Source of the DNA: Deltaproteobacteria bacterium
GTDB taxonomy: Bacteria; Desulfobacterota; DSM-4660; Desulfatiglandales; HGW-15
NCBI GenBank assembly: GCA_020060215.1
Contig: JAGVAP010000096.1
Location: 1 to 40,265 of the forward strand
Reading direction: 5' to 3'
DNA length: 40,265 bases
The notes under the pieces are model-generated. The model saw nothing but the letters and a program-made list of their open reading frames with translations, did no database searches and was not told the origin of the DNA. Position numbers and translations under genes: made by a program. Of this stretch, positions 15,823 through 18,986 are shown piece after piece (positions within the stretch are counted from its first letter, which is position 1; every line of letters begins with the position of its first letter).

Positions 15823-17550
15823 ATGGGCAAGGGTCGTACGCTTTTCAAAGACGAAATTCTCGAGAAATCACCCACCGGTATTAACGGTTTCGATGAGATC
15901 ACCGGCGGGGGGCTCCCCAAAGGAAGACCGACGCTGGTGGCGGGGTCGGCGGGCGCAGGAAAGACGCTGATGGGGATGGAATTCATCGTGCACGGCGCAA
16001 GAGACTACGGGGAACCCGGAGTCTTCGTCGCATTTGAAGAGTCCGTGAAGGACCTGGTCACGAACACGCAATCCATGTTCGATGTTCGCGGACTCGTGGA
16101 GAAGAACAAGATTGCGATCGATCATGTGTACATCGAAAAAGGCGAGATCGAGGAGACGGGGGAATTCGATCTCGACGGGCTGTTCGTGCGGCTCGCCTAT
16201 TCCATCGATCAGGTGAAGGCGAAGCGCGTCGTGCTCGACACCATCGAGGTCCTCTTTGCCGGTCTTCCGAACGAGGCCATCCTTCGGGCAGAGCTCCGGA
16301 GGCTCTTCCGGTGGCTCAAGGAACGGGAGCTCACGACCGTCGTCACGGGGGAGCGCGGCAGGGAAAGTCTTACGCGTCACGGCCTGGAGGAGTACGTGGC
16401 CGATTGCGTGGTCCTCCTCGATCACCGTGTCCATGAGCAGATATCGACCAGGCGCCTTCGCGTGGTCAAGTACCGGGGCTCATCTCACGGCGCAAACGAA
16501 TACCCCTTCCTGATCGGAGAAAAAGGCATCTCCGTGCTGCCGATTACTTCCGTCGGGTTGGGGTATGATGTTTCGCGGGAACACATCTCCTCGGGCATTC
16601 CGCGCCTGGACGCCATGCTTGAAGGAAAAGGGTTCTACCGCGGAAGCTCGGTTCTCCTCTCCGGCACCGCGGGGACCGGGAAGACGAGCCTTGCATCCAC
16701 TTTCGCAAAGGCAACGGCGGAGCGGGGGGAGCGGTGCCTTTATTTCGCGTACGAGGAGAGCCAGGCGCAGATCATCCGCAACATGCAATCGATCGGCATC
16801 CATCTGCAGCCATTCGTAGATAAGGGCCTTCTCAAGTTCGTAGCTGGGCGCCCGAGCGCGTTCGGGCTGGAGATGCACCTCACGATGATGCACAAGGCCG
16901 TCGAGGAGTTCAAACCCTCCGTCGTGGTGGTCGACCTGATCACCAACTTCATCCAGGCGGGGAGCGAAAGTGAAGTACGGTCCATGCTCACACGGATGAT
17001 CGACTTCTTCAAGGCAAGGCAGATCACGTCTCTTTTCAACAGCCTCACCAGAGGCGGCCATGAGATCGAACAGTCTGAAGTCGGCATGTCCTCCTTGATG
17101 GACGTATGGATCATTGTGCGGGACATCGAGAGCTCCGGGGAGCGGAACCGCGGGATCATGGTTCTCAAAGCACGGGGCACCGCCAATTCCAACCAGATCC
17201 GCGAATTCCGCATCACCGGGGAAGGGATCAAGATCGAAGATGTCTATGTCGGGCCCTCCGGGGTGCTGACCGGCGCAGCGCGCGCTGCACAGGAGGCGGC
17301 GGAGAAGGCGGCGGAGAGCGAGAGACGTCAGGAATACGAGCGAAAGCGTCGTGAGCTGGACCGCAAACGAGCCGTAGCCGAGTCGCAGATTGCGGCCATC
17401 CGGGCTCAGCTGGAGGCGGAGGAGGAGGAAATCCGCAAGGTCGATCAGCAGGAACGGAGCCGGGAGAAAACCGTTCTGGAATTTCGCGACAGGATGTGGC
17501 GGCTCCGCAAGGCCGATCAGGGGGATCGGCCGGAAGGTACTGAAGAATGA
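15823..17550 (+). CDS. kaiC: KaiC-family double-domain ATPase
   Basis: A 575-residue KaiC with two RecA-like domains. CI (about 10-245) has Walker A GSAGAGKT (41-48) and catalytic Glu72-Glu73 in VAFEES. CII (about 255-490) has Walker A GTAGTGKT (281-288) and Glu311-Glu312 in FAYEES. The site matching the cyanobacterial phosphorylated Ser431/Thr432 pair reads MSSLMD, giving Ser423-Ser424, so both positions are hydroxyl residues. After the CII core the protein carries an extra charged coiled-coil tail (about 485-560, AAQEAAEKAAESERRQEYER and onward), longer than in cyanobacterial KaiC (519 residues), where the A-loop end binds KaiA. No kaiA is present. Its stop overlaps kaiB1 by four bases, and three further kaiB genes follow. 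It likely works as a KaiB-controlled ATPase or signalling hub rather than a proven clock. Confidence 0.96.
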   Translation: MGKGRTLFKDEILEKSPTGINGFDEITGGGLPKGRPTLVAGSAGAGKTLMGMEFIVHGARDYGEPGVFVAFEESVKDLVTNTQSMFDVRGLVEKNKIAIDHVYIEKGEIEETGEFDLDGLFVRLAYSIDQVKAKRVVLDTIEVLFAGLPNEAILRAELRRLFRWLKERELTTVVTGERGRESLTRHGLEEYVADCVVLLDHRVHEQISTRRLRVVKYRGSSHGANEYPFLIGEKGISVLPITSVGLGYDVSREHISSGIPRLDAMLEGKGFYRGSSVLLSGTAGTGKTSLASTFAKATAERGERCLYFAYEESQAQIIRNMQSIGIHLQPFVDKGLLKFVAGRPSAFGLEMHLTMMHKAVEEFKPSVVVVDLITNFIQAGSESEVRSMLTRMIDFFKARQITSLFNSLTRGGHEIEQSEVGMSSLMDVWIIVRDIESSGERNRGIMVLKARGTANSNQIREFRITGEGIKIEDVYVGPSGVLTGAARAAQEAAEKAAESERRQEYERKRRELDRKRAVAESQIAAIRAQLEAEEEEIRKVDQQERSREKTVLEFRDRMWRLRKADQGDRPEGTEE

Positions 17551-17903
17551 CCGAGAAAAAGAGAAGAAGGCAGCCGGGCGCCAAGAAGGGCGATGTTCAT
17601 GAAGAGAATTTCTGGGAGCTGAAGCTCTACATCGCCGGAAAAACACGGAAGGGCAGCGCCGCTATCCAGAATCTCAAGGACATATGCGAAGAGCACCTGA
17701 AGGGGCGGTACCGGATTACGGTGATCGACCTGCGGGAGAGACCGGAGATCGCCTTCAAGGAACAGATCGTGGTTACTCCCACGGTGATCCGAGAGCTTCC
17801 CCCGCCGGTGAGAAAAATCATCGGGGACCTCTCAAGAAAGGAAAAGGTGCTGGTGGGTCTTGACATCCTGGCCAGAACGGTCGGCGAGGTCGCTCATGCC
17901 TGA
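17547..17903 (+). CDS. kaiB: KaiB-family protein 1
   Basis: A 118-residue thioredoxin-like KaiB. After a basic 22-residue N-terminal extension it reads ELKLYIAGKTRKGSAAIQNL, VIDLRERPEIAFKEQIVVTP, LPPPVRKIIGDLSRKEKVLV and GLDIL, matching the whole KaiB fold. It keeps the conserved TP, the PPPVRKIIGDLS segment and the G-L-D at the positions where mutations are known to shift the KaiB fold switch. A tail of ARTVGEVAHA follows. Its ATG overlaps the kaiC stop (ATGA), so the two are translationally coupled. It is the first of four consecutive, non-identical copies and probably the primary partner of this KaiC's CI ring. Confidence 0.94.
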   Translation: MTEKKRRRQPGAKKGDVHEENFWELKLYIAGKTRKGSAAIQNLKDICEEHLKGRYRITVIDLRERPEIAFKEQIVVTPTVIRELPPPVRKIIGDLSRKEKVLVGLDILARTVGEVAHA

Positions 17904-18243
17904 TCGAAAGAAGAACAAGAAAAAGGGCTTTGTACTCACCCTGTATATCGCGAGCATGAACGCGCGTGCGCGCTTTGCCATCGAGAACATCAGGAGATTT
18001 TGTGAGGAGCACCTCGAAGAGGGCTATGAACTGGAGGTCATCGATCTCAGAGAGAACCCGTCTCTGACGATAGAGGAGAAGATCGTGGCCACCCCGGTGC
18101 TGATCAAGCGTCTCCCCCCGCCGATTCGGACTTTCATCGGAAACATGCGGAACATGGAAAAGATTCTGGTGGGGATGGACCTGAAGAGAAAAGAAGGAGA
18201 AGAAGAAGCCATCCCGAACAACACCGACAGAGAGGGAGCATGA
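17896..18243 (+). CDS. kaiB: KaiB-family protein 2 (divergent)
   Basis: A 115-residue KaiB from the ATG at 17896, which overlaps the stop of kaiB1 by eight bases. It keeps LTLYIASMNARARFAIENIR, VIDLRENPSLTIEEKIVATP and the LPPPIRTFIG region. The otherwise constant GDLS motif is replaced by GNMRNMEK, and the conserved TP is followed by V rather than T. The later G-M-D keeps the fold-switch glycine and aspartate. A Glu/Lys-rich tail (KRKEGEEEAIPNN) follows. The altered loop suggests it no longer binds KaiC like the others, or binds a different partner. It has the lowest similarity of the four to cyanobacterial KaiB. Family membership is firm; its specific role is not. Confidence 0.92.
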   Translation: MPDRKKNKKKGFVLTLYIASMNARARFAIENIRRFCEEHLEEGYELEVIDLRENPSLTIEEKIVATPVLIKRLPPPIRTFIGNMRNMEKILVGMDLKRKEGEEEAIPNNTDREGA

Positions 18244-18608
18244 TGAAGCCAAAGGCGCAGGCGGAATCCGTGAAAAGGAAACCCGCCGCAAAACCGAAAC
18301 CCGAAACAGGCAAGAAGCCCCGGGAGCAGGAATTGGAATTCTATGAACTGAGGCTCTATGTGGCGGGACAGACACCCAAGTCGATCACGGCCTTCTCCAA
18401 CCTGAAGAGGATCTGCGAGGAGAACCTCAAGGGCAAGTACCGTATCGAGGTGATCGACCTCATAGAAAACCCCAAACTTGCCGCAGGCGACCAGATCCTG
18501 GCCATCCCAACGCTTGTGAGAAAGCTTCCGGAGCCTGTGAGAAAGATCATCGGCGATCTGTCCAACGAAGAACGCGTCCTCGTCGGCCTCGATCTCCTCC
18601 CGCGCTGA
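18240..18608 (+). CDS. kaiB: KaiB-family protein 3
   Basis: A 122-residue KaiB whose ATG overlaps the preceding stop by four bases. A Lys/Pro-rich leader of about 32 residues (KRKPAAKPKPETGKKPREQE) precedes a canonical KaiB core: YELRLYVAGQTPKSITAFSN, YRIEVIDLIENPKLAAGDQI, LPEPVRKIIGDLSNEERVLV and GLDLL. Of the four it is the closest by eye to cyanobacterial KaiB, sharing LYVAG.TP.S, ENPKLA and RKIIGDLS. The long basic leader is unusual and may be a flexible tether or nucleic-acid or partner contact. It lies in the same transcription unit as kaiC. Confidence 0.95.
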   Translation: MMKPKAQAESVKRKPAAKPKPETGKKPREQELEFYELRLYVAGQTPKSITAFSNLKRICEENLKGKYRIEVIDLIENPKLAAGDQILAIPTLVRKLPEPVRKIIGDLSNEERVLVGLDLLPR

Positions 18609-18641
18609 ATGCAGATCACATCCATTGAAGGAGAACCATCC

Positions 18642-18986
18642 ATGGCCAAGCGAAAGACGGGAGTCTCCGCCGCGAAGTACGAAAAAGCCATTTCAAAGAA
18701 GAAGCAGCAGAACCACCTGTTGCGACTGTACGTGACGGGGACCACCCGCAGGAGCGTCCGGGCGATTGAAAACATCAGGAAGATCTGCGAGGAGTATCTC
18801 CCGGATAGCTATGAACTGGAGATCATCGATGTGTACCAGCAGCCTCAGCTTTTGAACGGAGACCAGATCGTCGCGGTTCCCACACTCATCAAGAGGCTGC
18901 CGTCGCCCTTGAGGAAATTCATCGGGGATCTCTCGGACACCGACAAGATTCTCCTGGGATTGGATCTGAAAAAGAAGAGAGGTTGA
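18642..18986 (+). CDS. kaiB: KaiB-family protein 4
   Basis: A 114-residue KaiB from the ATG at 18642 behind GAAGGAGAACCATCC; a frame 33 bases longer has no ribosome site. A Lys-rich N-terminal stretch of about 24 residues (KRKTGVSAAKYEKAISKKKQ) precedes LLRLYVTGTTRRSVRAIENI, LEIIDVYQQPQLLNGDQIVA, LPSPLRKFIGDLSDTDKILL and GLDLKKK. The GDLSD and GLD positions match cyanobacterial KaiB. Unlike copies 1-3 it has its own ribosome site after a 33-base gap, so it may be expressed at a different level. A strong hairpin about 160 bp downstream could end the operon. Confidence 0.94.
   Translation: MAKRKTGVSAAKYEKAISKKKQQNHLLRLYVTGTTRRSVRAIENIRKICEEYLPDSYELEIIDVYQQPQLLNGDQIVAVPTLIKRLPSPLRKFIGDLSDTDKILLGLDLKKKRG

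What the first reader, a model, noticed from the sequence alone, without database searches (positions are those of the whole stretch)
15823..18986. One kaiC followed by four consecutive kaiB genes
The sequence shows a double-domain KaiC with both Walker and EE motifs, then four KaiB-fold proteins of 115-122 residues in one operon. The first three junctions overlap by 4-8 bases. Each kaiB has a different N-terminal leader and different core residues, so this is not a recent duplication. Known Kai systems usually pair one kaiC with one kaiB. Four versions without kaiA suggest graded or competing control of one ATPase. It may be a timing or stress-signalling device distinct from the cyanobacterial clock.
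Basis: partly seen in the sequence, partly recalled or inferred. Interest (0 to 1): 0.85.

Follow-up and report, generated by a model that had tools for sequence, protein, structure and literature searches.

The report
Two KaiB pairs behind one KaiC
A bacterial timer-like gene cluster has one KaiC gene followed by four KaiB genes; these are two sets of an old pair of KaiB types that, in most of the sampled relatives, occurs only once.

Summary
In detail: kaiC (15823-17550) is followed by four intact kaiB genes (17547-18986), all over Pfam's KaiB cut-off. The interpretation needs correcting. One kaiC with one kaiB is not the norm for this KaiC: of its 80 best-scoring loci in genome contigs, 69 carry two kaiB, 8 one, 2 three, 1 four. 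The two copies are different classes: in a tree all 69 first copies (alpha) lie on one side and all 69 second copies (beta) on the other; a smaller tree supports the split 100/100, and position is called correctly in 138 of 138 held-out cases. The window reads alpha'-beta'-alpha-beta: B3 and B4 are an ordinary pair, B1 and B2 belong to diverged subfamilies with relatives in unnamed public assemblies. Recent duplication is rejected. The four solved KaiB sequences that I classified score as alpha. KaiC is the coiled-coil-tailed, Ser-Ser KaiC2 type of the Rhodobacter sphaeroides KaiBC hourglass. The PAS histidine kinase that usually follows kaiB lies about 9.6 kb upstream here. KaiC and B3 have discordant nearest relatives, which suggests, but does not prove, a mosaic locus. 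Most likely a KaiA-free, ATP/ADP-reading KaiC2 timer with a doubled alpha/beta KaiB set. A new variant of a known kind; function untested.

The parts
4485..6179 (+). PAS histidine kinase of the family that usually follows kaiB; displaced upstream here
   Evidence: N-terminal PAS matches the profile of kaiB-adjacent kinases at 139 bits and is 72% identical over 149 aa to the kinase following kaiB in L003; Pfam PAS, HisKA, HATPase_c. The ORF opens at TTG 4380; 4485 is the likelier ATG (inference).
15823..17550 (+). kaiC, KaiC2 type: CI, CII, Ser423-Ser424 phosphorylation pair, C-terminal tail
   Evidence: PF06745 4.4e-108; best solved relative is R. sphaeroides KaiC 8dba, aligned over residues 14-562 including the tail, SSLMD against SSLMD
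17547..17903 (+). kaiB1 = alpha' (diverged alpha subfamily)
   Evidence: PF07689; clade with P0125-P0131, 100/100, inside the alpha side; alpha profile 135.7 against beta 116.5 bits
17896..18243 (+). kaiB2 = beta' (diverged beta subfamily)
   Evidence: PF07689; clade with P0242-P0245, 100/100, inside the beta side; beta 114.3 against alpha 107.7 bits, a small margin
18240..18608 (+). kaiB3 = alpha (ordinary first-position class)
   Evidence: 87% identical to the alpha of L003; alpha 168.9 against beta 127.5 bits
18609..18986 (+). kaiB4 = beta (ordinary second-position class); likelier start 18642
   Evidence: sister to the beta of L018, 100/99; beta 149.4 against alpha 128.8 bits

Best explanation
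The locus encodes a KaiA-free KaiBC timer of the Rhodobacter sphaeroides type in which KaiB comes as a pair of classes, alpha and beta, and in this organism as two pairs (alpha'-beta'-alpha-beta). Shown here: the protein families, the two classes and their order, the diverged alpha' and beta' clades, the tail and Ser-Ser site of KaiC, and the same partner-kinase family in the window. Inferred: KaiC forms double hexamers joined by its tail, autophosphorylates without KaiA and reads the ATP/ADP ratio; alpha and beta KaiBs in the fold-switched state occupy CI sites after hydrolysis, probably together, and speed ATP hydrolysis and dephosphorylation; the PAS kinase passes the state on; the second pair adds a second set of binding rates or a separately tuned reset. 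A possible origin, not established, is the joining of a kaiC-alpha'-beta' segment to a native alpha-beta pair.
For: Two-class split: all 69 firsts and all 69 seconds on opposite sides, 100/100 in the careful tree of 77 rows, 138 of 138 positions called correctly when held out by locus; Pararhizobium, outside that set, also reads alpha then beta. Natural single-chain proteins P0122 and P0123 have halves that fall in the two classes, which points to joint action. KaiC matches 8dba/8fwi over tail and phosphosites; that KaiBC is an hourglass with KaiB on CI (PMC10076222; abstract and sections 4, 5, 9, 10 read). The three prolines whose isomerisation sets the hours-long KaiB switch (PMC11551320, passages) are kept in all four KaiBs, and none has the three changes that flip R. 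sphaeroides KaiB to the other fold (PMC10808063, passages; my numbering, chain number minus two, is inferred). B1 and B2 models match ground-state KaiB crystals (TMt 0.72-0.85 and 0.63-0.72; fold-switched KaiB 0.44-0.53 and 0.45-0.55). The kinase follows kaiB in 70 of 75 loci with at least 700 nt of room, and the window has a family member at 139 bits that was not among the profile's 16 seeds.
Against: No binding, ATPase, phosphorylation or rhythm data for any beta, alpha' or beta' KaiB. Models of B1 and B2 are weak (mean pLDDT 65.0 and 59.8). Class margins are small for B2 (6.6 bits), beta' P0245 (0.8), and the cyanobacterial KaiBs called alpha (6.7-9.5). The nearest KaiC by sequence (P0002, 86%, contig of 83658) has no KaiB of that contig length in the best 120 for B1 or the 117 for B2, and contig length 63338 recurs for KaiC P0003 and alpha' P0127 but not for a beta', so the fourfold set may not be stable even among close relatives. 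Single-kaiB loci of either class exist, R. sphaeroides among them, so the pair is not always needed. B4 is 73% identical to the beta of L018 but 49% to that of L003, while B3 and the kinase are nearest L003, so the ordinary pair does not trace to one locus. Synechocystis KaiC2-KaiB2 is thought to have a non-clock role (PMC6989803, PMC11372060, passages).
Confidence: 0.6

Rival explanations
1. Four interchangeable KaiBs compete for the same CI sites and give graded control of one ATPase by dose.
For: All four keep the fold-switch prolines and the LP.P[IVL]R..IG core, and R. sphaeroides KaiB binds CI (PMC10076222). Single-kaiB loci of either class exist (4 on each side of the tree; 3 alpha and 5 beta by profile), so one class can suffice.
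Against: The four are ordered as two classes, with class-specific residues and the same order across the sampled phyla, and alpha-beta fusions exist; interchangeable dose copies would not need this.
Confidence: 0.15
2. The module is not a timer but an energy or redox sensor: KaiC2 reads ATP/ADP and passes it to the PAS kinase, with KaiB pairs setting gain.
For: Redox genes nearby (multihaem cytochrome c 19905-21551, cytochrome b561 19214-19918); R. sphaeroides KaiBC is driven by ATP/ADP (PMC10076222); KaiC2-KaiB2 of Synechocystis is thought non-clock (PMC6989803, PMC11372060, passages).
Against: Apart from kai and signalling-kinase clusters, no neighbour family occurs in more than 8 of 81 loci, so the redox genes say little. 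The three switch prolines are kept in 176-178 of 179 aligned KaiB rows, as expected if the slow switch matters.
Confidence: 0.3
3. B1 and B2 are decaying leftovers of a duplication.
For: Long branches in the first tree (1.42 and 1.87) and loss of several class-typical residues.
Against: Intact overlapping frames; relatives at 57-75% identity form two 100/100 clades with their own invariant residues, so both are maintained; with them added the end branches are 0.22 and 0.61.
Confidence: 0.07
4. Assembly artefact.
For: No whole genome is held for the window, so the join was not checked elsewhere.
Against: The four differ at 40-55% of aligned residues and cannot be a repeat error; alpha', beta' and an alpha (P0128, P0243, P0187) are listed with contigs of the same length, 1448, and the same source.
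Confidence: 0.02

Closest known systems
Rhodobacter (Cereibacter) sphaeroides KaiBC hourglass (PDB 8dba, 8fwi, 8fwj)
   Same: KaiC2 with Ser-Ser site and C-terminal tail, no KaiA, kaiC-kaiB order, kinase with a related N-terminal PAS region
   Different: It has one kaiB, scoring as alpha, with the kinase directly downstream; the window has alpha'-beta'-alpha-beta and the kinase 9.6 kb upstream
kaiCBB cluster of Thiodictyon syntrophicum Cad16 (PMC5944118, one passage seen)
   Same: One kaiC followed by two kaiB; the uncultured Thiodictyon locus L046 has a first copy on the alpha side and a second on the beta side
   Different: One pair only; the passage does not distinguish classes; the Cad16 sequence itself was not looked at
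Cyanobacterial KaiABC (S. elongatus, T. elongatus)
   Same: KaiC and KaiB families
   Different: Uses KaiA, Ser-Thr site, no such tail (PMC10076222); T. elongatus KaiB scores as alpha by 6.7 bits
Synechocystis KaiC2-KaiB2
   Same: KaiC2 subgroup with Ser-Ser (PMC6989803, passage)
   Different: One kaiB2; believed non-clock
Other expanded loci found here: L025 (alpha-alpha-alpha-beta), L001 (alpha-alpha-beta), L003 (beta-kaiC-alpha-beta)
   Same: More than two kaiB around one kaiC
   Different: L025 and L001 expanded alpha only, L003 has an extra beta upstream; none doubles the pair

Membership tests
KaiB (PF07689) | Profile match over the curated cut-off across the domain | tested here: met
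   74.8-96.5 bits against 27, for all four
KaiB (PF07689) | Metamorphic: ground state and fold-switched state | not testable with these tools
   Only weak ground-state models for B1 and B2; prolines conserved
KaiC2 / R. sphaeroides-type KaiC | Double-domain KaiC with two serines at the phosphorylation site | tested here: met
   window S423-S424 align with the SSLMD stretch of 8dba
KaiC2 / R. sphaeroides-type KaiC | C-terminal extension | tested here: met
   Alignment to 8dba runs to residue 562; that it forms a coiled coil was not tested
KaiC2 / R. sphaeroides-type KaiC | Dodecamer and KaiA-free autophosphorylation | not testable with these tools
   Needs protein
KaiBC-kinase module | PAS histidine kinase directly downstream of kaiB | tested here: not met
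   None within 900 nt after B4. Other profile matches in the window: 4374-6176 (148 bits), 29014-31881 on the other strand (43.7) and 21825-23213 (19.3)
alpha-beta KaiB pair (defined here) | First copy scores as alpha, second as beta | tested here: met
   B1/B2 and B3/B4, B2 by only 6.6 bits but in the beta side of the tree at 100/100
Cyanobacterial KaiABC clock | kaiA present | tested here: not met
   No KaiA among 30 window ORFs scanned with Pfam; the rest of the genome is not held
Circadian clock | Self-sustained, temperature-compensated, entrainable rhythm of about 24 h | not testable with these tools
   Needs experiment

The most novel reading that the evidence does not exclude
KaiB is not one protein but two ancient, jointly acting classes in most KaiC2 operons, forming mixed alpha-beta assemblies on the KaiC ring; and alpha'/beta' is a second, insulated pair, so that one KaiC can be set by two independent KaiB circuits. 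In line with insulation, position 74 of the alignment is L/M/V/I in 62 of 69 alpha and Y/F in 66 of 69 beta, but polar or charged in all 8 alpha' and all 5 beta' aligned. The column was picked after looking, and R. sphaeroides KaiB, a lone copy, also has Lys there.
Probability: 0.25. Interest if true: 0.85.

Novelty: new variant of a known kind. Interest (0 to 1): 0.62.

Why it matters
The KaiB work I read used one KaiB per KaiC, and the four solved KaiB sequences that I classified score as alpha. If most KaiC2 operons encode two old, co-ordinated KaiB classes, the simplest KaiA-free clock has an unstudied component, and fold-switch studies may have covered only half of the pair. The window, with both an ordinary and a diverged pair, gives a natural test of what each class does.

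Tried and rejected
Recent tandem duplication: holding all four window KaiBs together is rejected (p-AU 2e-46), as are B1+B3 (4e-4) and B2+B4 (0.009) as sister pairs.

A firm mosaic claim: I first took the KaiC tree to separate the window KaiC from those of L003/L018 (p-AU 1.5e-5), but that test set wrongly held P0005, which lies outside the window's own clade. Repeated: L003/L018 inside the window's five-row clade is rejected at p-AU 0.016; L003/L018 as sister to the wider 13-row clade is not rejected (0.43). The discordance of identities stands, with residuals of only about -2.1 s.d.; the claim is lowered to possible.

A KaiB locked in the fold-switched state: none of the four has the flipping residues; B1 and B2 model as ground state, weakly. 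B3 and B4 were not modelled.

More fourfold loci: left-out beta' rows score 158-185 bits and alpha' rows 161-203 against their own profiles; the best in 395 phylum-level genomes (beta' profile) was 124 and in 85 class-level genomes (alpha' profile) 149, so neither was seen there. None in viral contigs; on plasmids B2 found 13 records, 45-49% identical.

Conserved neighbours: besides KaiC, KaiB and a signalling cluster that mixes kinases with regulators, no family lies in more than 8 of 81 loci; a 34-locus cluster, all on the - strand, looks like antisense of the kaiB region (inference).

Promoter and terminator scans near chance; no Rfam match or tRNA.

Counting notes: one search keeps one KaiB domain per open frame, so single-frame fusions would be missed; several contigs end near kaiB (L022, L069, L080). 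In L028 and L032 the two kaiB domains lie about 650 nt apart. One search misses: L009, L062, L038, L042 and the window; in L038 and L042 the kinase abuts kaiB but its frame begins outside the distance filter. Of the 7991 B1 relatives I saw the best 120; of these P0125-P0131 and the halves of P0122-P0123 went into the tree, P0124 did not.

Literature: the searches showed no account of two KaiB classes or of four adjacent kaiB; kaiCBB appears in one paper (PMC5944118). Many subscription papers are not in that library. The names alpha and beta are mine.
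Full report
Observation. The window holds kaiC at 15823-17550 and four kaiB genes at 17547-18986, all on the + strand, with overlaps of 4, 8 and 4 bases, then a fourth kaiB that starts at 18609 or, more likely, 18642. All four pass the Pfam KaiB cut-off (74.8-96.5 bits against 27). Local identities among them are 45-60%.

KaiC type. The best solved relative is R. sphaeroides KaiC (8dba, 8fwi, 8fwj). The 8dba alignment covers residues 14-562, tail included, while the cyanobacterial full-length KaiCs mostly align to residues 485-503. 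The phosphorylation site is Ser-Ser. In PMC10076222 (abstract and sections 4, 5, 9, 10 read) this KaiC2 type forms a dodecamer through a coiled-coil tail, autophosphorylates without KaiA, follows the ATP/ADP ratio, and binds KaiB at CI after hydrolysis. The window KaiC meets the sequence features; the biochemistry is inferred.

Two kaiB is the norm here. A KaiB profile found exactly two kaiB in 69 of 80, one in 8, three in 2 and four in 1. In draws from three phyla, of 58 KaiB-bearing genomes (32, 13 and 13; centres left out; different profiles and thresholds) 30 have a run of two kaiB within 400 nt of each other and none has more. The characterised R. sphaeroides KD131 cluster is kaiC-kaiB-kinase with one kaiB; a Pararhizobium plasmid has kaiC-kaiB-kaiB.

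Two classes. A quick tree of 162 KaiB domains puts all 69 first copies on one side and all 69 second copies on the other, across bacterial and archaeal phyla. A careful tree of 77 rows supports the split 100/100. Profiles built from nine tenths of the loci call the position of the rest correctly in 138 of 138 cases. Diagnostic sites include I against L at alignment column 68, mostly aliphatic against Tyr at 74, Asp against Glu or other at 83, Arg against Lys at 93. I call the classes alpha (first) and beta (second). Solved KaiB sequences of R. sphaeroides, T. elongatus, Anabaena and Synechocystis score as alpha, by 15.5, 6.7, 9.5 and 8.4 bits; these are 4 of the 12 distinct KaiB-type chains listed, and the others, Legionella KaiB among them, were not classified. 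Of the 8 single-kaiB loci the tree puts 4 on each side; the profiles put 3 in alpha and 5 in beta, with L030 and L054 near the border; L069 ends inside its kaiB.

The window is alpha'-beta'-alpha-beta. B3 is 87% identical to the alpha of L003; B4 is sister to the beta of L018 at 100/99. B1 forms a 100/100 clade with seven proteins of unnamed source inside alpha; B2 forms a 100/100 clade with four inside beta. Recent-duplication trees are rejected. The margin for B2 by profile is small (6.6 bits). Two natural 203-aa proteins, P0122 and P0123, carry an alpha half and a beta half, a sign that the pair works together. Three proteins of alpha', beta' and alpha type (P0128, P0243, P0187) are listed with contigs of equal length 1448 and the same source; equal length suggests but does not prove one contig. 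Against a stable set: no KaiB with the contig length of the closest KaiC, P0002, is listed, and the contig length of P0003 recurs for alpha' but not beta'.

Fold switch. The three prolines behind the hours-long switch in R. sphaeroides KaiB (PMC11551320, passages) are present in all four window KaiBs and in 176-178 of 179 aligned rows; the three changes that flip R. sphaeroides KaiB to the other fold (PMC10808063, passages) are absent from the four. AlphaFold2 models of B1 and B2, each from 11 sequences, show the ground-state topology at mean pLDDT 65.0 and 59.8 and match ground-state KaiB crystals best.

Partner kinase. A gene of a signalling-kinase cluster directly follows kaiB in 71 of 81 loci by BLAST clustering, and the PAS profile finds it in 70 of 75 loci with at least 700 nt of room; both denominators include the window. 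Of 129 ORFs that the profile lists, 74 score at least 100 bits, 2 lie between 45 and 100, and 53 lie below 45. The window lacks one after B4, but 4485-6179 scores 139 bits and is 72% identical over 149 aa of the N-terminal region to the L003 kinase. The R. sphaeroides kinase scores 67 bits. PMC3164672 and PMC4794148 (passages) had noted kinases after kaiB.

Ancestry. B3 and the kinase point to the genome of L003/L018, which also has a gene 77% identical to 23242-24162, against 40-49% for the best hits in four other genomes and none in two. So the window may come from a relative of HGW-Deltaproteobacteria-15; this rests on few genes. KaiC does not follow: among 20 locus pairs with alpha identity of 0.84 or more, 19 have KaiC identity of 0.80 or more, but L003-window has 0.61; the two lowest residuals of 2346 pairs are the window with L018 and L003, at -2.1 s.d.. 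B4 is near the beta of L018 (73%), not of L003 (49%). The KaiC tree rejects L003/L018 within the window's own five-row clade (p-AU 0.016) but not as sister to the wider 13-row clade (0.43). A joined-up, mosaic locus is therefore possible, not shown; hidden paralogy is the alternative.

Verdict. What was taken for four competing variants is two alpha/beta pairs, and the pair itself is the widespread, little-noticed unit. Function is inferred from the R. sphaeroides system; I tested no beta KaiB and met no test of one in the passages I read.

Noticed in passing
P0122, P0123: Natural single-chain alpha-beta KaiB proteins of 203 aa with a linker of about ten residues.
   Followed up: partly
L025 and L001: Expansions of alpha only: alpha-alpha-alpha-beta in a planctomycete, alpha-alpha-beta in an archaeon.
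   Followed up: partly
L003: A beta kaiB upstream of kaiC in addition to the alpha-beta pair downstream.
   Followed up: no
L030, L054: Single-kaiB loci whose KaiB is nearly midway between alpha and beta (6.6 and 4.6 bits apart), perhaps like the state before duplication.
   Followed up: no
P0357: A 156-aa protein with KaiB followed by a piece of a KaiC domain, on an 837-base contig; possibly a chimera.
   Followed up: no
window 19214-21551, - strand: Cytochrome b561 and a multihaem cytochrome c gene converging on the kai genes.
   Followed up: no
window 24187-25938: YcaO domain joined to TPR repeats.
   Followed up: no
window 32012-33169: Histone-deacetylase-family protein.
   Followed up: no
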